This document shows, one piece after another, positions 35,521 to 48,613 of a stretch of DNA of 64,000 nt; the stretch's first letter is position 1; each line of letters begins with the position of its first letter. The translations under genes and the position numbers were made by a program. The DNA is from Blastococcus sp. PRF04-17 (lineage in GTDB: Bacteria; Actinomycetota; Actinomycetes; Mycobacteriales; Geodermatophilaceae). The DNA is taken from assembly GCF_023016265.1 (NCBI RefSeq), contig NZ_CP095412.1, positions 4,402,001-4,466,000 on the forward strand, written 5' to 3'. Under the pieces are notes generated by a model that saw nothing but the letters and a program-made list of their open reading frames with translations, ran no database searches and was not told the origin of the DNA.

Positions 35521-36270
35521 TCACCGCCGGCGGAAGGCCGTGGCGCCGAGGAGCACCACGGCGCCCAGCGCGACCAGCTGCAGCACCGGTGCCGCCATGG
35601 GCAGGAGGACCAGGAGCCCAGCGCCGGCCGCCGCCCCGGCGACGAGCCCGACGAGGATCTCGATGCTGTGCCGGACCTCGCGGACGCCGCGACCTGTCGC
35701 CAGTCGCATCACGACCGTGGTGAGGGTGCCGGTCAGGTAGGTCGTGGACATGCCGCTGACGCCGAAGCGCTGGACCGTGCTGCTCTGGATCCCGAGCGCG
35801 GCGGCCAGCGCGAACAGCAGGAGCAACGCGACCACCGTCCCCGGTCGTGCGCCCGTGAGCCACCAGCCCACGGCGTAGCCGATCAGCAGGACCAGTTCGA
35901 CGGAGAGGGCCAGCGTCACCGGCCGGGGCCAGACCCGGTCACCGGGCGTCGGCAGTCCGGCCAGTCGGGCGCCCAGGGCCGCGCCGGCGCAGAACGCGAC
36001 GATGGCACCTCCCGACGCGATCGCGAGCTCCCCGTCCGCGGTGCTGGCGGAGACGCCCAGGATGACCAGGTTCCCGGTCATGACGCTGGTGAAGGCGCCG
36101 CCGAGAGCCATGAGGCCGATGGCGTCGGTGGCGCCGCTGACGACGGCGAGGGTGACCACGAGCGACTGGCGCAGGCGCAGCGCTCGCCGGTGGTGGCGGT
36201 CCTCCGTCGCGCCCGGTCCGGCGGTCGGTGCGGTCGTGGCGGCGGGAGGAGGGGCAGGGGGGCCAGGCAC
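35521..36270 (-). CDS. DUF1275 (YoaK-family) membrane protein
   Basis: 249 residues, GTG at 36270. Six transmembrane helices with the family markers SGATDAIGLMALGGAFTSVMTGNLV, AGAALGARLAG and GVSGMSTTYLTGTLTTVV. Role unknown. It is divergent from the oxygenase operon, with the TGCACA-N17-TGTGCA site 46 bp before its start, so it may also be controlled from there. Confidence 0.85.
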   Translation of the reverse strand: MPGPPAPPPAATTAPTAGPGATEDRHHRRALRLRQSLVVTLAVVSGATDAIGLMALGGAFTSVMTGNLVILGVSASTADGELAIASGGAIVAFCAGAALGARLAGLPTPGDRVWPRPVTLALSVELVLLIGYAVGWWLTGARPGTVVALLLLFALAAALGIQSSTVQRFGVSGMSTTYLTGTLTTVVMRLATGRGVREVRHSIEILVGLVAGAAAGAGLLVLLPMAAPVLQLVALGAVVLLGATAFRRR

Positions 36271-36315
36271 GCTTGCAGGATCCCTGCCGGCCTGTCCGGA
36301 CAGCGCTGGTCCATG

Positions 36316-36344
36316 TGCACACGCAATTGCAGCGAACGTGTGCA
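36316..36344. promoter_or_regulatory. Putative operator TGCACA-N17-TGTGCA (oxygenase operon)
   Basis: TGCACA at 36316-36321 and TGTGCA at 36339-36344, separated by 17 bases; the inverted repeat extends to 8 bp (TGCACACG/CGTGTGCA). The same hexamers with the same spacing occur at 46809-46837 before the permease gene. It is 85 bp before the ATG of the oxygenase-like gene. The likely binder is the PucR-type regulator of this cluster. Confidence 0.6.
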
Positions 36345-36428
36345 GGATGACCGTCGGGCAGGCCGGAGTGACGCACCTAACTTGGACGCCACAAGCCCCA
36401 GCCCACGCGTCACCAGGGAAGGCCCTCC

Positions 36429-37169
36429 ATGACCGCCACGCTCAACCCCACCACCGAACTGCTCAGCCACGACGAGTTCCGCACCGCTCTGCAGGACGCG
36501 ATCAAGGGCCGCGAGGCCAAGAACGCCTCCTTCAGCAAGGCCTGGGCCGACGGCAAGCTCGAGCGGCACCACTTCGCCCGCTGGGCCGAAAACCACTACC
36601 AGTACGTCGGCCCCTTCGCCGACTACCTGGGCATCGTCTACGCGAACACCCCGGACACCATCACCGAGGCCAAGGACTTCCTGCTCCAGAACATGTACGA
36701 GGAGGAGCTGGCCGACATCCGCCACACCGACCTGCTGATCCGCTTCGGCGAGGCGTGCGGGACGACCCGGGAGCGGATCGAGGACCCGAACAACGCCAAC
36801 GCCGTCACCCGGGGCCTGCAGGCCTGGTGCTACGCGACGGCGCTGCGCGAGCACTTCGTCGTCGCCACGGCCGCGCTCGTGGTCGGTCTGGAGTCCCAGG
36901 TCCCCGAGATCTACAAGAAGCAGATCGTGCCGCTGCGCGAGACGTACGGCTTCACCGAGGACGAGATCGAGTTCTTCGACCTGCACATCACCTCCGACGT
37001 CGTCCACGGCGAGCGCGGCTACCAGATCGTGCTGGAGAACGCGAACACCCCCGAGCTGCAGCAGCGCTGCCTGCAGTTCGTCCGGTGGGGCGCCGAGATG
37101 CGCTACAGCTACACCCGCTCGCTCTACGACACCTACGTCGCCCCCGACCTCGAGGGCACGCAGGCCTGA
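36429..37169 (+). CDS. TenA/PqqC-fold (HDO-like) putative diiron oxygenase
   Basis: 246 residues, ATG at 36429. An all-helical heme-oxygenase-like protein: RHHFARWAENHYQYVGPFADYLG, NMYEEELADIRHTDLLIRF, and a C-terminal FFDLHITSDVVHGERG. Acidic and His residues at these places (E and H in EEELADIRH, E in GLESQ, then H-x3-D-x2-H) match the metal ligands of heme-oxygenase-like diiron oxidases such as UndA and CADD. It heads an operon with a Rieske ferredoxin and a ferredoxin reductase that could feed it electrons. TenA thiaminase or PqqC activity is unlikely in this setting. Substrate unknown. Confidence 0.78.
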   Translation: MTATLNPTTELLSHDEFRTALQDAIKGREAKNASFSKAWADGKLERHHFARWAENHYQYVGPFADYLGIVYANTPDTITEAKDFLLQNMYEEELADIRHTDLLIRFGEACGTTRERIEDPNNANAVTRGLQAWCYATALREHFVVATAALVVGLESQVPEIYKKQIVPLRETYGFTEDEIEFFDLHITSDVVHGERGYQIVLENANTPELQQRCLQFVRWGAEMRYSYTRSLYDTYVAPDLEGTQA

Positions 37170-37185
37170 GCGCCGGCTCCGACTC

Positions 37186-37216
37186 GGGGTGCCGGGCGCA
37201 GGGCGCCCGGCACCCC
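37186..37216. terminator. Perfect hairpin between oxygenase and Rieske genes (attenuator?)
   Basis: A 14-bp perfect stem with a 3-base loop starts 17 bases after the oxygenase stop and ends 62 bases before the Rieske GTG. Partial termination would make the oxygenase transcript more abundant than the rest of the operon; it could also stabilise a processed 3' end. Confidence 0.7.
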
Positions 37217-37278
37217 GTGCCGTCTCTGCGGCCTCAGCGCTGCCTCGCTGCCCGCACCACCACGAGCGGAGATCTCCC

Positions 37279-37698
37279 GTGAGCGAGCCAACCACCACCT
37301 CCCCGGCAGCCGGCGTCGACCAGCCGGCCGCGGGCCAGTCCTGGGTGCACGTCGCCGAGATGAAGGACCTGGCCCGCCGCAGGCGCAAGCAGGTCGACGT
37401 CGCCGGCTGCCCCGTGGCCCTCTTCCTGGTCGACGGCGAGGTGTTCGCCGTGGACGACACCTGCATCCACCAGGAGCGGTCGCTGGCGAAGGGCACCCTG
37501 CTCGGCGGCCAGGTCATCTGCCCCGGCCACCAGTGGAAGTTCGATCCGCGCACCGGGGAATCGGAGGACCAGGACGGCCGGCTGGCCACGTACACGGTGC
37601 AGGTCACCGAGGAGGGTGCGGTGCTCGTCGACCCCCGTCCGGCGACGCCCCGAGAGGCCACCACGTCCGAATCCGCGACGCACCCGGCCGGGCGGTGA
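37279..37698 (+). CDS. Rieske-type 2Fe-2S ferredoxin
   Basis: 139 residues from GTG at 37279 (SEPTTTSPAAG); an earlier start at 37189 would span the hairpin. Cluster ligands: C-I-H at about 62-64 and C-P-G-H at about 81-84 (VICPGHQWKFDPRTG). Like ferredoxins of dioxygenase systems (NirD-like small Rieske), it should carry electrons from the reductase encoded next to an oxygenase. The reductase follows 5 bp on. Confidence 0.88.
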   Translation: MSEPTTTSPAAGVDQPAAGQSWVHVAEMKDLARRRRKQVDVAGCPVALFLVDGEVFAVDDTCIHQERSLAKGTLLGGQVICPGHQWKFDPRTGESEDQDGRLATYTVQVTEEGAVLVDPRPATPREATTSESATHPAGR

Positions 37699-37703
37699 CA
37701 CCG

Positions 37704-38933
37704 ATGACAGAGCAGACGGTCGTCGTCGTCGGAGCCGGTCACGTCGCAGCCTCCGCCGCCCGTGCTCTGCGCCGTCGCGGCTTCGCCGGTCCCGTCGTGC
37801 TCGTCGGCGACGAACCGGTCGGGCCCTACCAGCGGCCGCACCTGTCCAAGGAGCGCCTGGCAACCGGCGGGGACGACGGCCTCTGGCTGCTCACCCCCGC
37901 GTGGTGCGAGGCCAACGACGTCATCCTCCGCACCAACAGCCCGGTCGATCGGATCGCCGCCGACACCGGCTCGGTCCTGCTCGCCGACGGCTCCGCGATC
38001 CCCGCCGACGTCGTGGTCCTGGCCACCGGTGGGCGCCCCCGCCGCCTCCCCGGCGTCGAGGGGGAGCGGGTCCACCACGTCCGCACGCTTGCCGACAGTG
38101 ACCGGCTGCGCGAGCGGCTGACCGCGGGACGCCGGATCGGCGTCCTCGGCGGCGGCTTCCTCGGCAGCGAGGTCGCGGCCGCCGCCCTGGGTCACGGCGC
38201 GGAGGTCGTCGTCTTCGACCGCGACCCGGTGTTGCTCGCCCGCGCCATGGGCGTCGACATCGGCGCCGCCCTCACCGGTCTGCACCAGCGGCGCGGCGTC
38301 GACCTGCGCCTCGGCCGGGCCATCAGCGAGATCCGCTGCGGCACCGACGGCGTCGTCGTCGTCACCGAGGGCGGCAGCCAGACCGTCGACGAGCTCGTGG
38401 TCTGCATCGGGATCGAGCCCAACACCGACGTCGCCGTCCGGTCCGGGCTGGCGGTCGGCAACGGCGTCCAGGTGGACGCCCAGGGCCGGACCTCGCTGCC
38501 GAACGTGTACGCCGCCGGCGACGTCGCGGCCCACGACCACCCGCTCTACGGCCGGGTCCGCGTCGAGCATGTCGACGTCGCGCAGCGGCAGGCGGCCGCC
38601 ATCGCGGCCACGGTGGCCGGGCGCCCCTCCACCTGCCGGGACGCGCACTGGTTCTGGACCGACCAGTACGACATCAACGTGCAGGGGCTCGGTCTGACCG
38701 GCATCCGGCCGACCGACACGCTGGTCACGCGCGGCAGCCTCGCCGAACTCGACGGCACCGCGTTCTGGCTCCGGGACGGCCACCTTGTCGGCGGCGCGTC
38801 GATCGAGCGCGGCGAGGACCTGTCGGTCGCCCGGGAGCTGATCGACCTAGGGATCCCGGTCAGCGCCGAGCAATTGGCCGACGAGTCGGTCGAGCTGGAG
38901 GACCTCCTGGACCAGGAAGAGGTGCCGGTCTGA
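37704..38933 (+). CDS. FAD-dependent ferredoxin reductase
   Basis: 409 residues, ATG at 37704. FAD motif VVVGAGHVAASAARALRRRG, GPYQRPHLSKE, the NAD(P)H motif GVLGGGFLGSEVAAAALGHG and the second FAD motif LPNVYAAGDVA are all present, followed by a BphA4-type C-terminal domain (HWFWTDQYDINVQGLG). This is the rhodocoxin/putidaredoxin-reductase family, which passes electrons from NADH to a Rieske or 2Fe-2S ferredoxin. Paired with the Rieske gene before it. Confidence 0.9.
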   Translation: MTEQTVVVVGAGHVAASAARALRRRGFAGPVVLVGDEPVGPYQRPHLSKERLATGGDDGLWLLTPAWCEANDVILRTNSPVDRIAADTGSVLLADGSAIPADVVVLATGGRPRRLPGVEGERVHHVRTLADSDRLRERLTAGRRIGVLGGGFLGSEVAAAALGHGAEVVVFDRDPVLLARAMGVDIGAALTGLHQRRGVDLRLGRAISEIRCGTDGVVVVTEGGSQTVDELVVCIGIEPNTDVAVRSGLAVGNGVQVDAQGRTSLPNVYAAGDVAAHDHPLYGRVRVEHVDVAQRQAAAIAATVAGRPSTCRDAHWFWTDQYDINVQGLGLTGIRPTDTLVTRGSLAELDGTAFWLRDGHLVGGASIERGEDLSVARELIDLGIPVSAEQLADESVELEDLLDQEEVPV

Positions 38934-40399
38934 TGACCCCTCGCACGGTACGCAACCTCATCGACGGCGCCTGGGTCGAGTCGGTCACCGGCCGCACCCT
39001 GGAACGGCGGAACCCCGCCGACGTGCGGGAGGTGGTCAGCACCTTCCCCGAGTCCGACGCGAAGGACGCCGAGGCCGCGGTCTCCGCCGTCAGCGCGGGC
39101 TGGCAGGAGTGGGCCGACACCAGCCCCGAGCAGAGGGCGAAGGTGCTGGAGAGCGCCGCCGCCGTCCTGGAGCGGCAGCGCGATCAGTTGATCGTCGAGC
39201 TGGTCCGCGAGGAGGGCAAGACCAAGGCGGAGGCCACGATGGAGGTCTCCCGCACGCCGATGAACCTCAGGTACTACGCGGGCGAGGCGCTGCGGACGGC
39301 CGGGGTCACCCTGCCGACCGGCGACGGCTCCCTGCTGTTCACCCTCCGCGCGCCGGTCGGCGTCGTCGCCGCCATCACCCCGTGGAACTTCCCGCTCAAC
39401 ATCCCGTCCCGCAAGCTCGGTCCGGCGCTGGCGGCGGGAAACGGCGTGGTCTTCAAGCCGAGCGAGGTCACGCCGCTGCTCGGTCAGTGCCTCGTCGACG
39501 CCCTGCTCGAAGGTGGGGTACCGCCCGGCGCGATCGCCGTCCTGCACGGAGGGGCGGAAGCGGCCTCGGCCCTCGTGACCGACGAACGGGTCGACGCCGT
39601 CACGTTCACCGGTTCCACCAACGTCGGTGAGGCGATCCACCGGGCGTCGCGGGCCAGCCGACGCACCCAGCTCGAGATGGGTGGGAAGAATCCGGTCCTC
39701 GTGCTCGAGGACGCCGACCTCGACCGCGCGGCGACCCTGATCACCAAGGGTGCGTTCGGGCTCTCGGGCCAGGCCTGCACCGGAACCAGCCGCGTCATCG
39801 TCCACGACGCGGTGCACGACGCCCTCGTCGACCGCATCGCCGCCAAGGCGCGGGCCCTGCGCGTCGGCCCGGGTCTCTCCGACGGCGTCGACCTCGGGCC
39901 GCAGGCCAGCGAGCGCCAGCAGCAGTCGGTCCTCGGACACGTGGCACGGGCACTCGACGACGGCGCCCGGCTCGTCGTCGGCGGTCCGGACGACGACAGC
40001 CAGGACCTCACCGCCGGAGACCTCGCGCACGGCCTCTACGTGCGGCCGACCGTCTTCACCGACGTCGACCCTGCCTCGGAGCTGGCGACCCAGGAGGTGT
40101 TCGGCCCGGTGCTGGCGGTCCTGCGGGTCCAGTCGTTCGACGAGGCCCTGCACCTCGCCGACGCCACCCGCTTCGGGTTGTCGGCGAGCATCGTCACCCG
40201 CGACATCGGCCGGGCGATGACCTTCGCGCGACGGGTCGACGCCGGCCTCGTGAAGGTCAACCAGCCGACCACCGGCCAGGCCATGAACGCCCCGTTCGGC
40301 GGCCTCAAGGACAGCAGCACCCAGACGTCGAAGGAACAGGCCGGAGAATCGATGATGAGCTTCTACACGGCCGACAAGACCGTCTACCTGAGCGCATGA
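38933..40399 (+). CDS. Aldehyde dehydrogenase (ketoglutarate-semialdehyde dehydrogenase-like)
   Basis: 488 residues, ATG sharing one base with the reductase stop. NAD-binding and catalytic motifs: ITPWNFPLNIPSRKLGPALAAGN, FTGSTNVGEAI, LEMGGKNP (catalytic Glu) and GLSGQACTGTSRV (catalytic Cys about 281). The pattern (EEGKTKAEA, YAGEALRTAG) is like the alpha-ketoglutaric semialdehyde dehydrogenase/GabD group. It would oxidise an aldehyde released by the pathway to an acid. Confidence 0.88.
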   Translation: MTPRTVRNLIDGAWVESVTGRTLERRNPADVREVVSTFPESDAKDAEAAVSAVSAGWQEWADTSPEQRAKVLESAAAVLERQRDQLIVELVREEGKTKAEATMEVSRTPMNLRYYAGEALRTAGVTLPTGDGSLLFTLRAPVGVVAAITPWNFPLNIPSRKLGPALAAGNGVVFKPSEVTPLLGQCLVDALLEGGVPPGAIAVLHGGAEAASALVTDERVDAVTFTGSTNVGEAIHRASRASRRTQLEMGGKNPVLVLEDADLDRAATLITKGAFGLSGQACTGTSRVIVHDAVHDALVDRIAAKARALRVGPGLSDGVDLGPQASERQQQSVLGHVARALDDGARLVVGGPDDDSQDLTAGDLAHGLYVRPTVFTDVDPASELATQEVFGPVLAVLRVQSFDEALHLADATRFGLSASIVTRDIGRAMTFARRVDAGLVKVNQPTTGQAMNAPFGGLKDSSTQTSKEQAGESMMSFYTADKTVYLSA

Positions 40400-40869
40400 C
40401 CGCCCCGGAGGAGACCTCGCCCGTGAACCCCACGCCCGTGAATCCCGCAGCCGTGAACCCCGCGTCCGACGAGGAACTCGCTGCGGCGAGCACCGAGTGC
40501 GCGTTCGTCCGAATCTGCCGTGCCGGGCAGGTACCCGACGGTTACGTCCGGCGCTTCTACGCCGACACCGAGCACGGTCAGATGGAGCTCGCCGTGGCGC
40601 GTCTGGACGGCAAGGCCTACGCGACGTCGAACTACTGCACGCATCTGGACTGCCTGCTGAGTTCGGGCAAGCTGCAGGACGACGGGATCCGCTGCTCCTG
40701 CCACAACAGCGTGTTCGACCTCGAGACCGGCGAGCCGATCCAGCCGCCGGCCACCGAGGCGATCCGCACGTACCCGGTACGCGAGGAGGACGGCCAGGTG
40801 CTGGTCGCCCTCTCCCAGCGCGACGTGATGGAGGGCGGTCCCCGCCGGCGCAAGCCGCCGTCGGTGTGA
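40396..40869 (+). CDS. Second Rieske 2Fe-2S protein
   Basis: 157 residues, ATG overlapping the aldehyde dehydrogenase stop by four bases. Ligands C-T-H (about 81-83) and C-S-C-H (about 100-103). An N-terminal extension with VNP repeats (see 40420-40464) and the YADTEHGQMELAVARL strand distinguish it from the first Rieske gene. It may be an alternative ferredoxin of the operon. Confidence 0.85.
   Translation: MTAPEETSPVNPTPVNPAAVNPASDEELAAASTECAFVRICRAGQVPDGYVRRFYADTEHGQMELAVARLDGKAYATSNYCTHLDCLLSSGKLQDDGIRCSCHNSVFDLETGEPIQPPATEAIRTYPVREEDGQVLVALSQRDVMEGGPRRRKPPSV
40420..40464 (+). repeat. Three tandem 15-bp repeats in the second Rieske gene
   Basis: Units at 40420, 40435 and 40450, consensus CCCGTGAACCCCRCG, encode PVNPT-PVNPA-AVNPA. 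The in-frame GTGs offer alternative starts. The unit number may vary between strains. Confidence 0.7.
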
Positions 40870-42491
40870 TCGCGCCGGGGGAGTGGCCCGCTTCCTGGGG
40901 GCCTGTCCGGACCTCGACGCTCGCCACGGGCGGCATGGTCAGCAGCAGTTCCCCCGCGGTCAGCCAGGCCGGCGCACGCGCCCTCGTCGAAGGCGGAACG
41001 GCGATCGACGCGGCGCTGGCTATGACGGCCATGTCGTGGCTGGCGCTGCCCGGTCAGTGCGGGATCGGCGGTGACTTCTTCGCCGTCGTCCGGGAGCCGG
41101 ACGGACGGGTGTGGACGGTCAACGGCAGCGGCTTCGGCCCGGACGGAGCGTCGGCCGAGGAGTACCTGGAGCGCGGCCGGACGGCGCTGCCCCTCAGCGG
41201 ACCGCAGGCCGTGGCCGCGCCCGGGGCGATCGGGGCCTTGGCCGCCCTGCACGAACGAGGCGGAACGCGGGACCTGGCAGACCTCTGGGCCCCGGCCGCA
41301 GCCGCTGCCCGCACCGGCATGCCCTGCACCGCCAAGAACCGCCGGGACATCGTCGAGCACGCCGACTCGCTGGCCCGAGACCACGACCTCGCCCGCTGGC
41401 TGCTGCCGGCCGGACGGATCCCGGACGTCGGCGACCGGCTCGTGTCGCCGGAGCTGGCCGACAGCATCGAGCGGCTGGCCCGCCGCCCCGGAGCGCTCTA
41501 CGAGGGCCCCGTCGCACAGCGTGCGGTGGACCTGTTGCGCGCCGGAGGCGCGCCCTTCTCCGGCGAGGAATGGCGGTTGGCCGGCAGTGTGGCCGTTGAG
41601 CCGGCGATCAGCGGGCCCTACGGCGGCTTCACCGTCCACCAGACGCCGTTGCCGTCGCCGGGCTGGATGATGCTGCAGCAGGCCGGGCTGCTCGACGGAC
41701 TGCTGACGGGCCTCCCGACCTCGGGCGCGGAGTCGGTGCACCTGCTCTCCCTGGCCGCGCGACGTGCCTTCCGGGACCGGTACGAGCGGTGCGCCTCCGA
41801 CAACGACGCCTGGCGAACGGTTCTCGGGGCCGACGAGCTCTCCCGGGGGCGACAGGAGCTCCTCGGCGAACCGGTGACGGCCGGGTTCCCGACCGGGATC
41901 GCGGGCGACACGACCAGTTGCGTTGCCGTGGACGCCGACGGGCGGGCGGTGAGCGCGATCTCGTCGCTCGCCTTCACCTTCGGCGCCCGGATCTCGATCC
42001 CCGGCACCGCTATCGCGCTGAACAACCGGCTCGCCCGGGGTTCCTATCTGGTCCCGGGACACCCCAATGCGCTGGCACCTCGGCGCAAGCCGCTGCACAC
42101 CCTCAACGCCTGGCTCGCCACCGACGGATCAGGCCGGCTCCGGCACGTCGGCAACACCCCGGGCGGCGACGGTCAGGTGCAGTGGAACATGCAGGTGCTC
42201 TCGCACCTCGTCGACGGTGGCCTCGATCCCCAGGAGGCGGTCTCGGCCCCCCGGACCACGGTGCACCCGGGCAGTGATGCCGACGCTCTGGGGACGCCCG
42301 AGACGCTGCAGTGCGAGAGCCGGCTCGGTGCTGACGTGCTCGCAGAGCTCGTGGCGCGGGGGCACGACGTGCGCGACGTGGGGGAGTGGAACGGCGGAGG
42401 CAGCGCTCTCCTCGTCTCGGTGGATCACGACCGCGGGGTCCTGGCCGGCGCCGCCGACCCCCGGATGGACGGGGTGGCGTTGGGTGTCTGA
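40866..42491 (+). CDS. Gamma-glutamyltransferase-family Ntn-hydrolase
   Basis: 541 residues, GTG at 40866 overlapping the Rieske stop (GTGA). The large-subunit start MVSSSSPAVSQAGARALVEGGTAIDAAL and the autocleavage site GDTTSCVAVDADGRAVS (nucleophile Thr at about 350) identify the family; the GISIPGTAIALNNR-type block follows. There is no signal peptide, so it should act in the cytoplasm. Besides glutathione or gamma-glutamyl amide cleavage, this family includes oxamate amidohydrolase (HpxW) and other amidases, which would fit a catabolic operon better. Substrate unknown. Confidence 0.82.
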   Translation: MIAPGEWPASWGPVRTSTLATGGMVSSSSPAVSQAGARALVEGGTAIDAALAMTAMSWLALPGQCGIGGDFFAVVREPDGRVWTVNGSGFGPDGASAEEYLERGRTALPLSGPQAVAAPGAIGALAALHERGGTRDLADLWAPAAAAARTGMPCTAKNRRDIVEHADSLARDHDLARWLLPAGRIPDVGDRLVSPELADSIERLARRPGALYEGPVAQRAVDLLRAGGAPFSGEEWRLAGSVAVEPAISGPYGGFTVHQTPLPSPGWMMLQQAGLLDGLLTGLPTSGAESVHLLSLAARRAFRDRYERCASDNDAWRTVLGADELSRGRQELLGEPVTAGFPTGIAGDTTSCVAVDADGRAVSAISSLAFTFGARISIPGTAIALNNRLARGSYLVPGHPNALAPRRKPLHTLNAWLATDGSGRLRHVGNTPGGDGQVQWNMQVLSHLVDGGLDPQEAVSAPRTTVHPGSDADALGTPETLQCESRLGADVLAELVARGHDVRDVGEWNGGGSALLVSVDHDRGVLAGAADPRMDGVALGV

Positions 42492-42936
42492 ACGCGAGGA
42501 CGACGGGCGGCCGATGACCGCGGTGCCGCCCCAGGGCGCCTACGTACCGGCGGTGGTCCACGGCGGCCTGGCCTGGACGGCGGGCATGACGCCGCGCCGG
42601 CACGGTGAGCTGGTCGTCCACGGAGTGGTCGGACGAGACCTCGACGTCGCGATGGCGCGGGAAGCCGCGGGCCTCGCGGCCGACAACGCCGTCACGGCGC
42701 TCGTCGAGACGGTCGGGTTGGCGGGCATCGACCGCGCGCTCAAGATGACCGTCTTCATCGCCGCGGTCGACGGCTTCACCGCTCATGCGGCGGTGGCCGA
42801 CGGTGCCTCGACCGTCCTGCGAGAGCGGCTCGGGGAGCGGGGGTCGGTGGCACGAAGCGCGGTCGGTGTGCGGACGCTGCCGTCGGGCGCCCCGGTCGAG
42901 GTGGAGCTCGTCGCCGCGGTCACGCCGCCGCCCTGA
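42484..42936 (+). CDS. RidA-family (YjgF/UK114) protein
   Basis: 150 residues from GTG at 42484, which overlaps the Ntn-hydrolase stop by eight bases; ATG at 42514 is an alternative. Family markers GAYVPAVVHGGLAWTAGMTP, DNAVTALVETVGLAGI and VFIAAVDGF, ending ARSAVGVRTLPSGAPVEVELVA with the conserved Arg. RidA proteins deaminate reactive enamines/imines or act in aminated-ring catabolism, so nitrogen chemistry in the pathway is likely. Last rightward gene of the operon. Confidence 0.88.
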   Translation: MSEREDDGRPMTAVPPQGAYVPAVVHGGLAWTAGMTPRRHGELVVHGVVGRDLDVAMAREAAGLAADNAVTALVETVGLAGIDRALKMTVFIAAVDGFTAHAAVADGASTVLRERLGERGSVARSAVGVRTLPSGAPVEVELVAAVTPPP

Positions 42937-42998
42937 TGCGCCTGCACCGGCCCGATGGCGCCGCCGCACGGCTGCACCACCGGGGCCCTGTCGGCGGA

Positions 42999-43451
42999 TC
43001 AGGCAGGCGGGTTGGCGGCCACGTGGTCGGCGAACGCCTGCAGGGCGGCGGCGCCGACCGCCTTGTCCTGCTCACCGTTCCCGCCGCTGACGCCGACAGC
43101 ACCGACGATCTGGCCCTCGTGCACGATCGGGAAGCCGCCGACGAAGATCGCGAACTTTCCGGGCAGCATGTGGGAGATGCCGAAGGCCTCGTTACCCGGC
43201 AGGGCGGGACCGTTCGGCGGCTCGTTGAACAGATGGGTGGCCCGCTCGTGCCCGGCGGCGGTGAACGCCTTGGCGATCGAGATCTCCACACCCGTCAGCC
43301 GGGCTCCGGGCAAGCGGTGCAGGGCGACGACGTTGCCCCCGTCGTCGCAGACGCAGATGGTCTGCTTCACGCCGAGCTCCTCGGCCTTCGCCCGCGCGGC
43401 CTGGAGGATCGGCAGGGCGTCGTCGAGGGTGATCCGGAAGACCTGGTGCAC
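42999..43451 (-). CDS. HbpS/GlcG-family (DUF336) protein
   Basis: 150 residues from GTG at 43451 with GGAGGAG upstream. The whole length is a DUF336 domain: ILQAARAKAEELGVKQTICVCDDGGNVVALHRL, AFTAAG and the VGAVGVSGGNGEQDKAVGAAA end. HbpS binds heme in Streptomyces; GlcG-like members accompany catabolic operons with unknown roles. It is divergent from the PucR gene. Confidence 0.88.
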   Translation of the reverse strand: MHQVFRITLDDALPILQAARAKAEELGVKQTICVCDDGGNVVALHRLPGARLTGVEISIAKAFTAAGHERATHLFNEPPNGPALPGNEAFGISHMLPGKFAIFVGGFPIVHEGQIVGAVGVSGGNGEQDKAVGAAALQAFADHVAANPPA

Positions 43452-43615
43452 GAGAACTCCTCCTCCGGCGCGAGGCCGGGCCAGACGACAACCGGACTCC
43501 GCGGAACGGGAGCCGGCGACTTCCCACCCTGGGGCCTGGACGACGGCCCGAGCAATGGTGAGACTGCAGCGTCGGGCTCGCCGACCGTTGTGCACTGTGA
43601 CCCGAGGAGCGCCGC

Positions 43616-45315
43616 TTGCCGCACGCCTACTCCGACGACGCGCTGACGCTGGCGCGCCTGCTCCAGGAGCCGGCGCTGCGCCGTGCCCGGATCCACGCCG
43701 GGCGCACCGGTGCGGTGACGAGGGTGGAATGGGTGGTGCCCTGGTCGGTCGCCGCCGACCAGGAGGACCCCCTCGGGGGGTGCTGGTGCACGCCCACGCC
43801 GCGGAGCTCGAGCGGGACCAGGTCAGCGTCACCCGGGCGGCCGAGCGGCTCGCCGCGCGCGGCGCGGCGGCGCTGTTGGTCGACGGTCACGAGACGGTCG
43901 CCGGGGACGCCGTCGCCGCCGTCCAGCTGCCCCTGGTCACCATGCCCGACCCGGTGTCCTTCGCCACCGTCAACCGGCTGGTCGCCGATCTGACGCTGGC
44001 CCGCGAGACGCACGTCCTGCGATACGGCCTGACCGTGCACCGCGCGCTGGCCGAACTGCTCTACCGGGGCGCGGAGCTGGCGGCCCTGTGCAGCCAGATG
44101 TCCCGCATGTCGCAACGGCCGGTCGCCGTCTTCGACAGCCAGGGGCAGCTCGCCGCGCTCGAGCAGCACAGGCGCACCGTCGAGCCCGCCGAGCTGGCGC
44201 GGGCCTTCGCCGAGCAGGCCGAGGCACTGGGCACCCGGGAGGCGCCCGCGGAGGTGCACCCCCGCTTCGCCGAGATCCGGGTGGGCGACCGCGAACTGGC
44301 GTGCGTCGTCACCCCGATCGTGCTCGGTGGTCGACACGACGGCTGGATCCTGCTGCTCGAGGAGAGCGACGACCCGCACCCGCACGACATCGCCGAGCAC
44401 CGGGTCCTGGTCGAGCAGGCAGCGCCGATCGTCGGCACCGAGATGCTGAGGCTGCGCAGTGTGCAACGCGCCAAGGAACAGGCGCGGGGCGACTTCGTGC
44501 ACGGTCTGCTGCACGGGCGGTTCGCGACACTGGAGGACATCAGTGCGCGGGCGGCGCACTACGAGTTCCCGGTGCGGTCGTGGTTCGGAGTGCTGATCGC
44601 CTCCGGCATCACCCTGCCCGGCGACGCGGATTCCCCGACCCGCCTCCAGCAGATCGCGGTGCAGGTCACCCGTCTGCTGCCCGAGAAGGAGCGGCACACC
44701 TTGGCCGCGATGGTCGGGGACGTGCTGGTCGTGGTCCGCGAGGTCGCGCGCCGGGGCACGATGGGCACACCGGAGACCGCCGTCACGACCATCTGCGACT
44801 ACGCGGGAGCGCTGCAGGCCTACCTGTCCAACCGCAAGGACCAGGCCGGCCGGCCGGTGCGCGTCACGTACGGGCGGCCGGTCGTCGGGGCCCTGTCGAT
44901 CCCCGACAGCTATCGCGAGGCCCGCATGGCACACGGACTGCAGCAGCGCCTCGGCCTCCCGCCGGTGTGCGGCTACCAGGAGCTCCGCGTGCACGCCGTG
45001 CTCGAGGACGTGGCCGCGAGCCGCACCGGGCGGTCGTTCGCCGCCGACATCCTCGCGCCGCTACGGGATCCCAACGTCGGTGACCTGGAGTCGGCCGTGC
45101 TCGCCTACGTGGCCAGCGGGGGCAACGTCAACGCGGCCTCCCGGGACCTGCACATCCACCGCAACACGATGCTCTACAAGCTGGACCGCGCCTCGCGGCT
45201 GCTGGGCATGGACCTGCGCCAGGCGGACAACCAGTTCGCCGTGTGGCTTGCGCACACCCTCGACCTCCTGGCCAACACGACCGCCGAGGTGGATCGGGTG
45301 GTCCGCCCGGTCTGA
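43616..45315 (+). pseudogene. PucR/CdaR-family transcriptional regulator, frameshifted
   Basis: TTG at 43616 with GAGGAG upstream starts an N-terminal PucR domain (DDALTLARLLQEPALRRARI). At the G6 run 43775-43780 the frame changes by one base; the other frame continues VLVHAHAAELERDQVSVTRA to a C-terminal helix-turn-helix (ASRDLHIHRNTMLYKLDRASRLLG) and stop at 45315. Adding one G gives about 566 residues. Such regulators sense small molecules and activate adjacent catabolic genes. If the frameshift is real the regulator is dead and the cluster may be constitutive or silent. Confidence 0.82.
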
Positions 45316-45321
45316 CGCCGC

Positions 45322-46779
45322 TCAGGAGGCCGGCCGGTCGGGGAGCTGCCTGCCGAGGAAGCTGACGACCAGGCCCCCGAGGGCCGCCGCGCCGCAGCCG
45401 GCGAACAGCCAGAACAGGCCGTCCGGCCAGGCCGCCGCCACCGCGGCGGTGCCGCTGGCCGCCCCGACGAACCGCATCATGTTGAACAGTCCCAGGCCGG
45501 TGCCGCGCTGTCCCGCCGGCGACCGCGTCGCGCCGGTCAAGGCGGGGGTCTGCACCAGGGCGATGGCCGTGCCGGCCGCGAGCAGCAGACCGATCAGCGG
45601 CGCCAGGTGCGTGACACCGGCGGCCAGCACGGTGGCCAGCCCGATGTCGACGACCGCGATCAGTCCGAGCCCCGCGCGCAAGACCGGGCGCGGCCCGATC
45701 CGGTCGGCCAGCAGCCCGACGAGCGGGGCGGCGACCGCCCACACCAGCGGCAGGCAGAACACGAGGAGGCCGGTGACCGCCACCGACAGGCCGACCACAC
45801 CGGTCAGGTACAGCGGCACGGCGACGAGCACCGCGGCAAGGCTGGACTGCTGGACGAAGACGGCGGTGGCGCTGCGCAGCCAGCGCACCTCGACGAGCAG
45901 GCGGGGATCGATGAACGGCGCCGCGCGCCGCAAGCCGGCGACGACGAAGCCGATCAGGCTCACCAGGCCGAGGCAGGCGCCGGCGACGGGCAGCCAGAGG
46001 GGAACGCCGGGCTGCGGTGCGGCCGTGGCGGCGGTCATGAGCAGGGCGACGCCCAGAGTCAGCGCGCTCACCCCGACCCAGTCGATCCGGGTGCGGTGAC
46101 CGTCGTCGCGGGGCACGACCCGCAGGGTCAGGATCAGCACGCCGACAGTGACGGGGACCAGCGCACCGAAGATCCACCGCCAACCGAAGGCGTCGGCCAC
46201 CAGTCCACCCACAGGTGGACCGATCGCCTGGCCGATCCCGTTGGCCGCGCCCCAGGCGCCCATCACGCGGTTGCGGTGGGAAGGCGCGAAGCTCCGGGCC
46301 AGCGTGCCCATGACGGCCGTCGGCACCGCCGCGCAGCCGAGCCCCTGCAGGCCGCGGCTGATCACCAGCAAGGACAGCGTGGGCGCCACCGCGGCGCCGA
46401 GCGTTCCGGCGAGCAGCACGGACAGGGCGAGCACGAGTGTCCGGCGGCGGCCGAGTCGGTCGCTGATCCAGCCGGTGAAGGGCATGGCGACGGCCAGCAC
46501 GAGGACCGAGGCCGAGGCGACCAGCACCCCGTGGGCCACCGGTGCGTCCAGGTCGGAGATGATCCGGCGCAGCGGGACGTTGACGATGTTGTTGCTGATG
46601 GTGCCGAGCACCGTGGCGCCGAGCAGGGCGGCCAACAGCCAGCCGCGCTTCGCGCGGGGAGCCGTGTCCGGCGCGGCGGGGGACGGTGGCGCGGACTCCG
46701 CCCGGGCGGCGGGAGCCGGCCCCGTCGACAGCTCCGGCACGGCGGTCCTCTCATTACTCCGACTGGGTGAGAGCGTCAC
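45322..46779 (-). CDS. MFS drug/metabolite transporter (DHA2-like)
   Basis: 485 residues, GTG at 46779. About 14 transmembrane helices; motif A GWISDRLGRRRTLVLAL and motif C GAANGIGQAIGPPVGG of proton-driven exporters are clear. An N-terminal Pro/Ala tail precedes helix 1. It may export a pathway intermediate or unrelated toxic compounds. It converges with the PucR gene with a 6-bp gap and is divergent from the permease gene. Confidence 0.88.
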   Translation of the reverse strand: MTLSPSRSNERTAVPELSTGPAPAARAESAPPSPAAPDTAPRAKRGWLLAALLGATVLGTISNNIVNVPLRRIISDLDAPVAHGVLVASASVLVLAVAMPFTGWISDRLGRRRTLVLALSVLLAGTLGAAVAPTLSLLVISRGLQGLGCAAVPTAVMGTLARSFAPSHRNRVMGAWGAANGIGQAIGPPVGGLVADAFGWRWIFGALVPVTVGVLILTLRVVPRDDGHRTRIDWVGVSALTLGVALLMTAATAAPQPGVPLWLPVAGACLGLVSLIGFVVAGLRRAAPFIDPRLLVEVRWLRSATAVFVQQSSLAAVLVAVPLYLTGVVGLSVAVTGLLVFCLPLVWAVAAPLVGLLADRIGPRPVLRAGLGLIAVVDIGLATVLAAGVTHLAPLIGLLLAAGTAIALVQTPALTGATRSPAGQRGTGLGLFNMMRFVGAASGTAAVAAAWPDGLFWLFAGCGAAALGGLVVSFLGRQLPDRPAS

Positions 46780-46915: not shown

Positions 46916-48613
46916 ATGCAACTGACAGCAGCGCACTGGATCTTCCTGGCCGGGGTGATCGTCATCCTGGCCACGATGATCATGCGCAAGAACATCGTGG
47001 TGCCGGCGGTTCTGGCCACGTTCCTGACGGCGCTCGTGTGGTCGGGCAGCCTCGCGACCGGTCTGTCCTCCGTCTTCAACGCGAGCCTCGTGGCGGCGAC
47101 CAACCTGTTCAACATCTTCCTGATCATCGCCATGGTCACGGCGATGCTCAGGTCGCTCGAAGGTCTGGGATCGGACCGGCGCATGGTCGCGCCGTTCCGC
47201 AGGGTGATGCGCAACGCCCACCTCTCCTGGTGGACCCTGGTGATCGTCACCTACTTCATCTCGCTGTTCTTCTGGCCCACCCCCGCCGTGCCCCTGGTCG
47301 GCGCCGTCCTGGTGCCGGTGGCCATCCGCGCCGGCCTGCGCCCCCTCGCGGTCGGCTTCACGATCGCGATCGCCGGGCAGGGCATGGCCCTGTCGTCGGA
47401 CTACATCATCGGAGTCGCCCCGCAGCTGTCGGCGACCACCGCCAACGCCGACGTCACGGTGGTGGCCGACCGTGCTCTGGTGCTCTCGCTGATCGTCGGT
47501 GGTGTCGCCCTCGCCATCGGCTACGCCATGGAGATCCGCAAGATGCGTCGGCCTTCGGACGCCCTGCTCGAGGAGTGGGAGAGCAGCGCCGATCGTCGCA
47601 GCGGCAGCGCCGACGCCGAGGCGCGGCAGGAGGTCGTTCTCGGTGGCAGCGCTCCCTCGTCGACCGGCTCCGCCGGCGGAACGGGCGGCAGTACCCCCGT
47701 CCCGGTCGACGGCACCGGAGGCGGCGGCCCGTCGGTCGAGGGGGAACGGGAGCTGGTCGGTGTCGGAAGCGGTACGTCGAGCGCTCCGCGCGACGAGGCG
47801 GAAGCCATCGCGGCGCGCCTCAGCCGGGCCCACGCCCTCGTCGGAACGCCGGCGGGAGGGCCCGTACCGCCCGAGCAGCACACCATCCAGCCGGTCGAGA
47901 AGCCGGTCGCGTCCAAGGCGTTCGCTCTGCTCGTCCCGCTGGCCTACCTCGCGCTGATCGTTTACCTGATCGTGGCCGCGGCGTCGGACGCAGTGCCCGA
48001 CCTGCAGGGCGGAGACGCGGCGGCGCTGGTCGGCGGGATCGCACTGCTGGTCATGTTCGGCGCCGCGTACGCCCGGAGTGGCCCGAAGTTCCTGGAGACC
48101 TCGGCCGACCACATCGTCGACGGCCTGGTGTTCGCCTTCAAGGCGATGGGCGTGGTGCTCCCGATCGCCGGCTTCTTCTTCATCGGCAACGGTGAGTTCG
48201 CCACGTCGATCCTCTCCATCCCGGAGGGTGAGACAGCACCGAACCTGCTCTTCGACCTGGTCGTCGCCGGCCAGGAGCAGCTCCCGGCCAACGCCTTGCT
48301 GACGGCCTTCGGGATCATGATCGTCGGGGTCGTCGCGGGGCTCGACGGGTCGGGCTTCTCCGGGCTTCCCCTCACCGGTTCCCTGGCGGGGTCCCTGGCG
48401 GACGGGGCCGGAGTCAGCAGCCCGACGCTGGCAGCGATCGGTCAGATGGGCAACATCTGGTCCGGTGGCGGCACACTCGTCGCCTGGTCGTCGCTGCTGG
48501 CCGTGGCCGGGTTCTGCCGGGTCTCCGCCGTCGAGCTCGCCCGCCGCTGCTTCGTGCCGGTGATCGCGGGACTGGCGGTGGCCACGGTGCTCGGCGTCGT
48601 CATCTTCGGCTAG
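46916..48613 (+). CDS. Large permease with a long cytoplasmic loop
   Basis: 565 residues, ATG at 46916. About 12 hydrophobic helices in two halves (HWIFLAGVIVILATMIMRKN; LSWWTLVIVTYFISLFFW; then AFALLVPLAYLALIVYLIVAA; GFSGLPLTGSLAGSLADG). Layout and length suggest a secondary transporter of the ion-transporter (CitM/ArsB-like) kind. A loop of about 110 residues (about 210-325), rich in Gly/Ser/Glu, separates the halves. It carries the shared operator upstream, so it may import the cluster's substrate. Family not certain. Confidence 0.7.
   Translation: MQLTAAHWIFLAGVIVILATMIMRKNIVVPAVLATFLTALVWSGSLATGLSSVFNASLVAATNLFNIFLIIAMVTAMLRSLEGLGSDRRMVAPFRRVMRNAHLSWWTLVIVTYFISLFFWPTPAVPLVGAVLVPVAIRAGLRPLAVGFTIAIAGQGMALSSDYIIGVAPQLSATTANADVTVVADRALVLSLIVGGVALAIGYAMEIRKMRRPSDALLEEWESSADRRSGSADAEARQEVVLGGSAPSSTGSAGGTGGSTPVPVDGTGGGGPSVEGERELVGVGSGTSSAPRDEAEAIAARLSRAHALVGTPAGGPVPPEQHTIQPVEKPVASKAFALLVPLAYLALIVYLIVAAASDAVPDLQGGDAAALVGGIALLVMFGAAYARSGPKFLETSADHIVDGLVFAFKAMGVVLPIAGFFFIGNGEFATSILSIPEGETAPNLLFDLVVAGQEQLPANALLTAFGIMIVGVVAGLDGSGFSGLPLTGSLAGSLADGAGVSSPTLAAIGQMGNIWSGGGTLVAWSSLLAVAGFCRVSAVELARRCFVPVIAGLAVATVLGVVIFG

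What the first reader, a model, noticed from the sequence alone, without database searches (positions are those of the whole stretch)
36429..42936. Putative diiron oxygenase with its own Rieske/reductase chain in a nitrogen catabolic operon
A heme-oxygenase-fold (HDO-like) protein is followed by a Rieske ferredoxin, a ferredoxin reductase, an aldehyde dehydrogenase, a second Rieske protein, a gamma-glutamyltransferase-family hydrolase and RidA. I know of no characterised HDO pathway with a dedicated Rieske electron chain. The set suggests oxidation of a nitrogen compound (amine, amide or N-heterocycle) to an aldehyde, then an acid, with amide hydrolysis and imine clean-up. This is the best candidate for an undescribed pathway in the window.
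Basis: partly seen in the sequence, partly recalled or inferred. Interest (0 to 1): 0.78.

Follow-up and report, generated by a model that had tools for sequence, protein, structure and literature searches.

The report
Diiron oxygenase with its ferredoxin chain
A gene block scattered through many genera of soil bacteria pairs an unusual iron-dependent oxygen-using enzyme with its own chain of electron-carrying proteins, and it probably breaks down a small nitrogen-containing acid that has not yet been identified.

Summary

The block is larger than reported: it includes an HbpS-like gene (42999-43451), a PucR-type regulator, an MFS gene and an anion-carrier-like transporter. In 112 family genomes, orthologs of HDO, HbpS, Rieske 2, ALDH and transporter sit in the same 10. 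HDO and HbpS are far more conserved (medians 83%, 85%) than the rest (40-67%).

In Burkholderiales the same HDO, HbpS and ALDH occur with two plant-type ferredoxins and another reductase type; one deep relative has one plant-type and one Rieske ferredoxin. This swap is the best evidence that the carriers serve the HDO.

Closest known: MboA/MboB (HDO with redox partner) and AibH1H2GF (catabolic diiron oxygenase with Rieske ferredoxin). My searches found no description of this block. Substrate unknown; a nitrogen-containing acid or amide is inferred.

The parts
36429..37169 (+). HDO-type diiron oxygenase/oxidase (246 aa); ligand positions E92, H99, E155, H186, D190, H193
37279..37698 (+). Rieske [2Fe-2S] ferredoxin 1 (139 aa; start codon uncertain)
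   Evidence: PF00355; C62, H64, C81, H84 kept in 79 of 79 loci with a hit, of 80
37704..38933 (+). FAD-dependent ferredoxin reductase (BphA4/HcaD/putidaredoxin-reductase type)
   Evidence: PF07992 and PF14759; PDB kin 1q1r, 4h4t, 1d7y
38933..40399 (+). aldehyde dehydrogenase; best NCBIfam model is 2,5-dioxovalerate dehydrogenase, below its cut-off (521.5 of 750 bits)
   Evidence: C282, E248, N152 in 73 of 73 loci with a hit
40396..40869 (+). Rieske [2Fe-2S] ferredoxin 2 (157 aa)
   Evidence: PF00355; C81, H83, C100, H103 in 74 of 74 loci with a hit; BphA3-like
40866..42491 (+). GGT-fold N-terminal-nucleophile amidohydrolase/acylase (not a true gamma-glutamyltransferase)
   Evidence: PF01019; Thr349 kept in 64 of 67 loci with a hit (3 not covered); gamma-glutamyl-binding positions replaced against E. 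coli GGT
42514..42936 (+). RidA/YjgF-family protein (enamine/imine deaminase-like)
   Evidence: PF01042 44.7 bits; match in 61 of 62 long loci
42999..43451 (-). HbpS/GlcG/EfgA-like (DUF336) protein, convergent with the operon; co-conserved with the HDO (start codon inferred by comparison)
   Evidence: PF03928 119 bits; median identity 85%; ortholog only in the 10 HDO-bearing genomes of 112; PDB kin EfgA, OrfY, PduO-C, NahX
43616..45315 (+). PucR-type (CdaR-like) regulator; in this window the gene shows an apparent frameshift after about 55 codons
   Evidence: HTH_30 and GGDEF_2; two frames needed to cover the relatives' protein
45322..46779 (-). MFS transporter linked to the block
   Evidence: PF07690; match in 58 of 62 long loci
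46916..48613 (+). Transporter without a Pfam or NCBIfam match; fold like MleN and, more weakly, TRAP and INDY/NaDC carriers
   Evidence: no family; Foldseek best 9a59 E 1.5e-4, the only match at E 0.001 or better; ortholog at 76% or more in the 10 HDO-bearing genomes

Best explanation
The block encodes a multicomponent oxygenase and the pathway around it. NADH electrons pass through the FAD reductase (37704-38933) to the Rieske ferredoxins and on to a CADD-like HDO, whose diiron site activates O2 and oxidises a small nitrogen-containing organic acid (or its amide) brought in by the anion-type transporter. The oxidation leads to an aldehyde, which the ALDH turns into an acid. An imine or enamine by-product is hydrolysed by RidA (or handled by an ornithine-cyclodeaminase-like enzyme in other lineages). 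An amide or lactam is opened by the GGT-fold amidohydrolase. The HbpS-like protein is an accessory of the HDO, either loading or guarding its labile iron site or buffering the aldehyde. Shown by sequence: the genes, intact iron-site, Rieske and catalytic residues, co-inheritance, and replacement of one carrier type by another. Inferred: electron flow to the HDO, the aldehyde product, the substrate class and the role of HbpS.
For: (1) HDO ligand positions kept in 479 of 480 cases; fold closest to CtCADD, then PqqC, UndA and HrmI. (2) Operon spacing and block conservation. (3) In 112 family genomes, HDO (89% or more), HbpS, Rieske 2, ALDH and transporter orthologs are in the same 10 genomes; one extra genome has a transporter match at 44-51%. 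(4) The carriers are swapped while HDO, HbpS and ALDH stay: two plant-type ferredoxins plus a Fer2/FAD/NAD reductase in Cupriavidus and Caballeronia; one plant-type plus one Rieske in L128. (5) I found no other conserved oxygenase in the block. (6) Precedents: MboA needs MboB, an NADH-dependent flavin/Fe2S2 partner, for its full reaction (PMC13185094, passages); AibH1H2GF couples a diiron hydroxylase to a Rieske ferredoxin, with an ALDH in the same catabolic cluster (PMC7782822, passages). (7) The transporter fold points to anionic substrates. An amidase-signature gene with a second transporter copy sits beside the block in 9 of the 80 loci (69-100% identical amidases), and a more distant amidase match with a second transporter copy in four genomes of the window's family, three of which are also among the 80. 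This suggests an amide form of the substrate.
Against: No biochemical test, and no known substrate. HDOs other than MboA are reported to work with chemical reductants or mediators (PMC13185094, passages), so the chain could serve another enzyme. L128 shows no match to either reductase type in its stretch. GGT and RidA have no match in the four Burkholderiales loci compared, so amide and imine steps are not universal. DUF336 proteins occur in many unrelated clusters, and the aldehyde-binding residues are common to the family. The ALDH matches 2,5-dioxovalerate dehydrogenase only below the cut-off, and in some loci is only 39-44% identical. The transporter model is of medium confidence (pLDDT 74). 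In the co-inheritance searches not every first-look candidate was scored for ALDH and transporter. The block is sparse: in an even sample of 396 genomes of the phylum only the own genome and one other have an HDO of this type.
Confidence: 0.62

Rival explanations
1. The HDO is a single-turnover or self-sacrificing enzyme, as CADD is (making a cofactor or 4-aminobenzoate-like product from its own side chain). The ferredoxins, reductase, ALDH and amidohydrolase then form a neighbouring pathway that uses its product.
For: CtCADD is the closest solved structure, and NCBIfam's best hit is the CADD family (91.6 bits, cut-off 200). The very strong conservation of the HDO (median 83%) could reflect sacrificed residues.
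Against: The identity to CADD is only 24% and the score is far below the family cut-off. The HDO keeps company with an ALDH, transporters and a catabolic-type regulator, and its ortholog is missing from 102 of 112 relatives, so it is not a housekeeping cofactor enzyme. Two electron carriers accompany it in the three lineages examined.
Confidence: 0.12
2. The Rieske proteins and reductase do not serve the HDO. They feed an oxygenase encoded elsewhere, or act as redox sensors, and the HDO acts without external electrons.
For: Rieske and reductase proteins are less conserved than the HDO (medians 48-67% against 83%), and related Rieske ferredoxins are common: 102 of 112 family genomes have a match to Rieske 2 at E 1e-10 or better.
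Against: Orthologs of Rieske 2 at 80% or more occur only in the 10 HDO-bearing genomes, the next best being 44%. Non-homologous ferredoxins take their place beside the same HDO in other lineages. No other conserved oxygenase was found in the block.
Confidence: 0.15
3. An ordinary member of a characterised pathway whose enzymes I failed to recognise, described in papers outside the held library.
For: The block is present in well-studied degrader genera (Rhodococcus, Mycolicibacterium, Cupriavidus), and only open-licence full texts were searched. No search by gene or protein accession was run.
Against: Ten literature searches listed no paper that describes the block, as judged from titles and abstract starts. 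The March 2026 HDO review counts about a dozen characterised HDOs and, in the parts read, names a redox partner only for MboA.
Confidence: 0.11

Closest known systems
MboA/MboB, mangotoxin biosynthesis (HDO with dedicated redox partner; PMC13185094, passages)
   Same: HDO with 3-His/3-carboxylate diiron site and a dedicated NADH-dependent partner. The Burkholderiales relatives of our block carry a reductase with Fer2, FAD and NAD domains, i.e. flavin plus Fe2S2 as reported for MboB.
   Different: Biosynthetic peptide substrate and alkyne product. In the window there is a separate FAD reductase plus two Rieske ferredoxins, in a block with ALDH, amidohydrolase, transporters and HbpS.
AibH1H2GF, alpha-aminoisobutyrate monooxygenase of Rhodococcus wratislaviensis (PMC7782822, passages)
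   Same: Catabolic diiron monooxygenase fed by a Rieske ferredoxin and a reductase, in a cluster with an ALDH and a transporter, in an actinobacterium.
   Different: The AibH subunits are amidohydrolase-fold (TIM barrel) proteins, not HDO; the reductase is a [2Fe-2S]/FMN type; no HbpS, GGT-fold protein or RidA in the passages seen.
CtCADD (CT610), PDB 8va9 and 1rcw
   Different: 24% identity; CADD is self-sacrificing (review).
EfgA / HbpS / GlcG / NahX (DUF336 proteins)
   Same: Our HbpS-like protein is in the family and keeps the three positions named for formaldehyde binding in EfgA.
   Different: Part of an HDO block and conserved as tightly as the HDO; its function is unknown. Whole-length identities to the known members were not computed.
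Biphenyl/toluene/phenylpropionate dioxygenase electron chains (BphA3/A4, HcaC/D, AndAb/Aa)
   Same: The Rieske ferredoxins and FAD reductase are of this type.
   Different: No Rieske oxygenase alpha subunit was found with them; the terminal oxygenase is the HDO (inferred).

Membership tests
HDO (heme-oxygenase-like dimetal oxidase) | Seven-helix heme-oxygenase-like fold | tested here: met
HDO (heme-oxygenase-like dimetal oxidase) | 3-His/3-carboxylate ligand set | tested here: met
   E92, H99, E155, H186, D190, H193 line up with CADD (which CADD residues are ligands is recalled) and are kept in 479 of 480 cases over 80 loci
HDO (heme-oxygenase-like dimetal oxidase) | Dimetal site and O2-dependent activity in the protein itself | not testable with these tools
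   needs purified protein
HDO with dedicated redox partner (MboAB-like) | Redox partner encoded with the HDO | tested here: met
   62 of 62 long loci have Rieske 1, Rieske 2 and reductase matches; alternative carriers in Burkholderiales
HDO with dedicated redox partner (MboAB-like) | Partner required for turnover | not testable with these tools
   needs reconstitution
CADD family (TIGR04305) | Score over the curated cut-off (200 bits) | tested here: not met
   91.6 bits
Gamma-glutamyltransferase | N-terminal nucleophile Thr at the processing site | tested here: met
   T349 in 64 of 67 loci with a hit, the other 3 not covered; aligned with Thr in 2i3o and 2nlz. In the E. coli chain 2e0w the aligned residue reads Ala, which I take from memory for a nucleophile mutant
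Gamma-glutamyltransferase | Gamma-glutamyl-binding Arg114, Asp433, Ser462/Ser463 (E. coli numbering, recalled) | tested here: not met
   against 2e0w these positions read Ser, Arg391 and His411-Thr412; Arg391 and Thr412 are kept in 64 of 64 covered loci, His411 in 61 of 64; score below the TIGR00066 cut-off, 200 of 358 bits
Rieske-type ferredoxin (BphA3-like) | CxH...CxxH cluster motif in a short protein without catalytic domain | tested here: met
   139 and 157 aa; motifs kept in 79 of 79 and 74 of 74 loci with a hit
2,5-dioxovalerate dehydrogenase | Score over the curated cut-off (750 bits) | tested here: not met
   521.5 bits, best of the models listed but below cut-off
DUF336 / HbpS-like | PF03928 over cut-off | tested here: met
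   119 bits, cut-off 25

The most novel reading that the evidence does not exclude
This is a new class of multicomponent oxygenase. A CADD-like HDO is the terminal oxygenase, accompanied in each lineage examined by two [2Fe-2S] ferredoxins whose type can be exchanged (Rieske or plant-type) and, nearly always, by an HbpS-like protein conserved as tightly as the oxygenase. It starts a still undescribed catabolic pathway, found in at least two bacterial phyla, for a compound met in soil. HbpS would be a true component, for example an iron loader for the labile diiron site or an aldehyde trap, which would give a biochemical role to one of the unexplained DUF336 proteins of catabolic operons.
Probability: 0.45. 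Interest if true: 0.82.

Novelty: new variant of a known kind. Interest (0 to 1): 0.72.

Why it matters
The review read in part here counts about a dozen characterised HDOs, presents the family mainly as serving natural-product biosynthesis, and names one with a native redox partner. An HDO with a full ferredoxin chain, found across many genera, would give a system for multiple-turnover HDO chemistry, move the family into carbon and nitrogen catabolism, and offer a handle on the long-unexplained DUF336 proteins. The block is easy to test: it is compact, present in workable soil bacteria (R. jostii NBRC 16295, C. metallidurans CH34), and its patchy presence among close relatives makes growth comparisons simple.

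Tried and rejected
Methylamine link: one locus (L089, Pseudonocardia acaciae) has a gamma-glutamylmethylamide-synthetase-like gene and a glutamate-synthase-like gene upstream (named by eye). The synthetase gene does not follow the HDO over 112 genomes: 20 match at E 1e-60 or better, and homologs at 57% or more are in only 2 of the 10 HDO-bearing genomes. Dropped.

Homarine and pyrrole-2-carboxylate pathways: searched; no listed paper tied them to an HDO. Not followed.

Formaldehyde sensing by HbpS (EfgA-like): the three named positions are kept in 69 of 69 loci with a hit, but the paper says they are largely conserved across the family, so this is not specific evidence.

True gamma-glutamyltransferase: rejected on binding residues. 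Anti-phage system: no PADLOC match for HDO or HbpS. ALDH substrate from solved structures: betaine-aldehyde, succinic-semialdehyde and other ALDHs score alike, not informative; a first search with a cut-off of 1e-100 found nothing.

Promoters and terminators: no consensus sites in 36200-43700, which says little in a high-GC actinobacterium.

Wider distribution: a search around a non-actinobacterial genome was not possible, so presence outside Actinomycetota rests on six plasmid records, of which five were fetched (L111, L112, L129, L130, L131; L131 was not compared further). In an even sample of 396 genomes of the phylum, 12 matched at E 1e-15 or better, but only the own genome and G142 (73%) at high identity; the other ten are at 24-33%. 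The scan of 84,980 species genomes confirmed 252 related places by exact peptide patterns and kept 80. So the block is spread over many genera but rare.
Full report
WHAT IS THERE. The window is 64 kb of a 4.59-Mb single-contig genome. Its HDO is 91-98% identical to those of five records titled Blastococcus. At 36429-42936, on the + strand, lie seven genes with gaps of 109, 5, -1, -4, -4 and 22 bp: HDO, Rieske 1, ferredoxin reductase, ALDH, Rieske 2, a GGT-fold protein and RidA. Directly after them are a convergent HbpS-like gene (42999-43451), a PucR-type regulator (43616-45315), an MFS gene (45322-46779, -) and a transporter gene (46916-48613) with no Pfam or NCBIfam match.

CONSERVATION OF THE BLOCK. 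Of 252 related places in the genome collection, the best 80 were kept, with HDO identities of 79-98%, in Blastococcus, Geodermatophilus, Micromonospora, Nocardioides, Rhodococcus, Pseudonocardia, Gordonia, Mycolicibacterium, Streptomyces, Amycolatopsis, Actinomadura and others. In the 62 of these loci with at least 20 kb of sequence the gene families were matched as follows: HDO 62, Rieske 1 62, reductase 62, Rieske 2 62, ALDH 61, RidA 61, PucR 61, HbpS 60, GGT 58, MFS 58, transporter 58. A match is a tblastn hit at E 1e-8 or better anywhere in the stretch, so some may be paralogs, and some absences are due to the end of the stretch. Median identities to the window are 83% for HDO and 85% for HbpS, against 67 (Rieske 2), 61 (ALDH), 58 (GGT, transporter), 56 (RidA), 52 (Rieske 1), 48 (reductase), 46 (MFS) and 40% (PucR; query partly out of frame). 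Cluster motifs of Rieske 1 (79 loci) and Rieske 2 (74) and catalytic residues of the ALDH (73) are kept wherever a hit was found.

CO-INHERITANCE AND SPARSENESS. Among 112 genomes of the family, 18 match the HDO at E 0.001, 10 of them as orthologs (89% or more), the other 8 at 21-24%. HbpS orthologs (91% or more; next best 47%) are in the same 10, Rieske 2 orthologs (80% or more; next 44%) in the same 10, ALDH matches at E 1e-180 or better (77% or more) in the same 10, and the transporter (76% or more) in the same 10, with one further genome at 44-51%. For ALDH and transporter not every first-look candidate was scored. These genes travel as a unit. The unit is rare: in 396 genomes drawn evenly from the phylum only the own genome and one other (73%) carry this HDO type.

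SWAPPED ELECTRON CARRIERS. Six plasmid records of Cupriavidus and Caballeronia carry the same HDO (66-70% identity). In the four compared (L111, L129, L130 Cupriavidus; L112 Caballeronia) it sits with the ALDH (46-49%), HbpS (53-62%) and transporter (40-48%). The window's Rieske, reductase, GGT and RidA queries have no match there. Instead there are two plant-type ferredoxins, a reductase with Fer2, FAD and NAD domains, an ornithine-cyclodeaminase-like gene and a small protein without a family. In an actinobacterial relative of unnamed identity (L128, HDO 73%), the HDO is followed by one plant-type ferredoxin, one Rieske protein and a RidA-like gene (by eye), with a GGT-like gene, an ornithine-cyclodeaminase-like gene, HbpS and ALDH on the other strand and no recognised reductase. 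So HDO, HbpS, ALDH and two [2Fe-2S] ferredoxins are constant, while the ferredoxin type changes. I read this as evidence that the ferredoxins serve the HDO; it is not a biochemical proof.

OTHER OXYGENASES. A scan for long proteins with a Rieske motif over the 1375 called ORFs of the 80 loci gave 2 hits: one at the edge of L065, about 9 kb from the HDO, and one in L096 that is a mis-called Rieske 1/reductase stretch. In the clustering of these ORFs the families in more than 16 loci are those of the block plus a DUF1275 membrane protein; the next are sulfatase-like and ribosomal proteins, named by eye. The caller is crude and recovered the HDO in 75 of 80. The window itself has just two Rieske motifs, at 37462 and 40636.

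THE GGT-FOLD PROTEIN. It keeps the nucleophile Thr, but in the alignment with E. coli GGT (2e0w) the positions of Arg114, Asp433 and Ser462/Ser463 read Ser, Arg and His-Thr (numbering recalled). Nearest solved relatives are a 'GGT-related protein' and a 'cephalosporin acylase'. It is better called an N-terminal-nucleophile amidohydrolase. HpxW, an oxamate amidohydrolase of this fold, comes to mind from memory; no call identified it.

SUBSTRATE CLUES. The transporter model (pLDDT 74) resembles MleN (an integrative model, E 1.5e-4) and, with E-values above 0.001, TRAP, INDY and NaDC carriers, which move organic anions. The ALDH is closest to 2,5-dioxovalerate dehydrogenase models without reaching the cut-off. 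An amidase-signature gene beside a second transporter copy is linked to the block in 9 of the 80 loci, and a more distant amidase match with a second transporter copy in four Geodermatophilaceae genomes (L132-L135, three of them also among the 80). Together with RidA and the amidohydrolase this suggests a nitrogen-containing organic acid, also taken as its amide. This is inference.

HOW IT PROBABLY WORKS. NADH, reductase, ferredoxin(s), HDO, O2; then aldehyde, ALDH, acid; imine or enamine by RidA; amide or lactam by the GGT-fold hydrolase. HbpS probably assists the HDO. Two roles fit: iron supply, since a published HbpS binds iron (title and abstract start of PMC3754957 in the listing) and HDO sites are labile (review section); or aldehyde binding as in EfgA (passages of PMC8153426).

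WHAT IS KNOWN. Of the 2026 HDO review I saw the abstract, sections 4 and 11 and term passages. It counts about a dozen characterised HDOs; the word ferredoxin does not occur in its text, and section 4 names MboB as the redox partner of MboA. The MboAB paper (passages) calls itself possibly the first characterised dedicated HDO-redox partner pair. AibH1H2GF (passages) is a catabolic diiron oxygenase with a Rieske ferredoxin but an amidohydrolase fold. Searches for this block or an HDO with a Rieske chain listed no description. The library holds only open-licence papers, so absence is not proof.

VERDICT. Its chemistry is open. It is a new variant of a known kind (HDO with dedicated electron supply), in a catabolic setting not described in the sources searched.

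Noticed in passing
43616-45315: The PucR-type regulator gene shows an apparent frameshift: about the first 55 codons are in another frame than the rest, compared with intact relatives (L133, L134). It could be a real lesion or a sequencing error.
   Followed up: partly
46916-48613: Transporter without any Pfam or NCBIfam match, found beside the HDO in 58 of 62 long loci and duplicated in a number of them; fold like MleN and, weakly, other anion carriers.
   Followed up: partly
L111 10397-10735 and L112 15075-15422 (minus strand): A small protein without a Pfam family lies between the two plant-type ferredoxins in Cupriavidus and Caballeronia (36-43% identical); it may be a further component of the oxygenase.
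   Followed up: no
L102 16315-19277 and similar loci: A second transporter copy and an amidase-signature gene (69-100% identical in 9 loci) are attached to the block; Geodermatophilaceae loci L132-L135 have a more distant amidase match in the same setting.
   Followed up: partly
Mycolicibacterium loci such as L099, L102, L106: In several Mycolicibacterium genomes the block lies next to ribosomal protein genes (L14, L24, L5 by eye), as a module between housekeeping genes.
   Followed up: no
35521-36270 (-): A DUF1275 membrane protein gene upstream of the HDO is kept in Geodermatophilaceae and some other loci (match in 20 of 62 long loci).
   Followed up: no
G000:C1:1342699-1343229 (L001): The genome has a second PF14518 protein with a higher score (203 bits) than the HDO of this block; not examined.
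   Followed up: no
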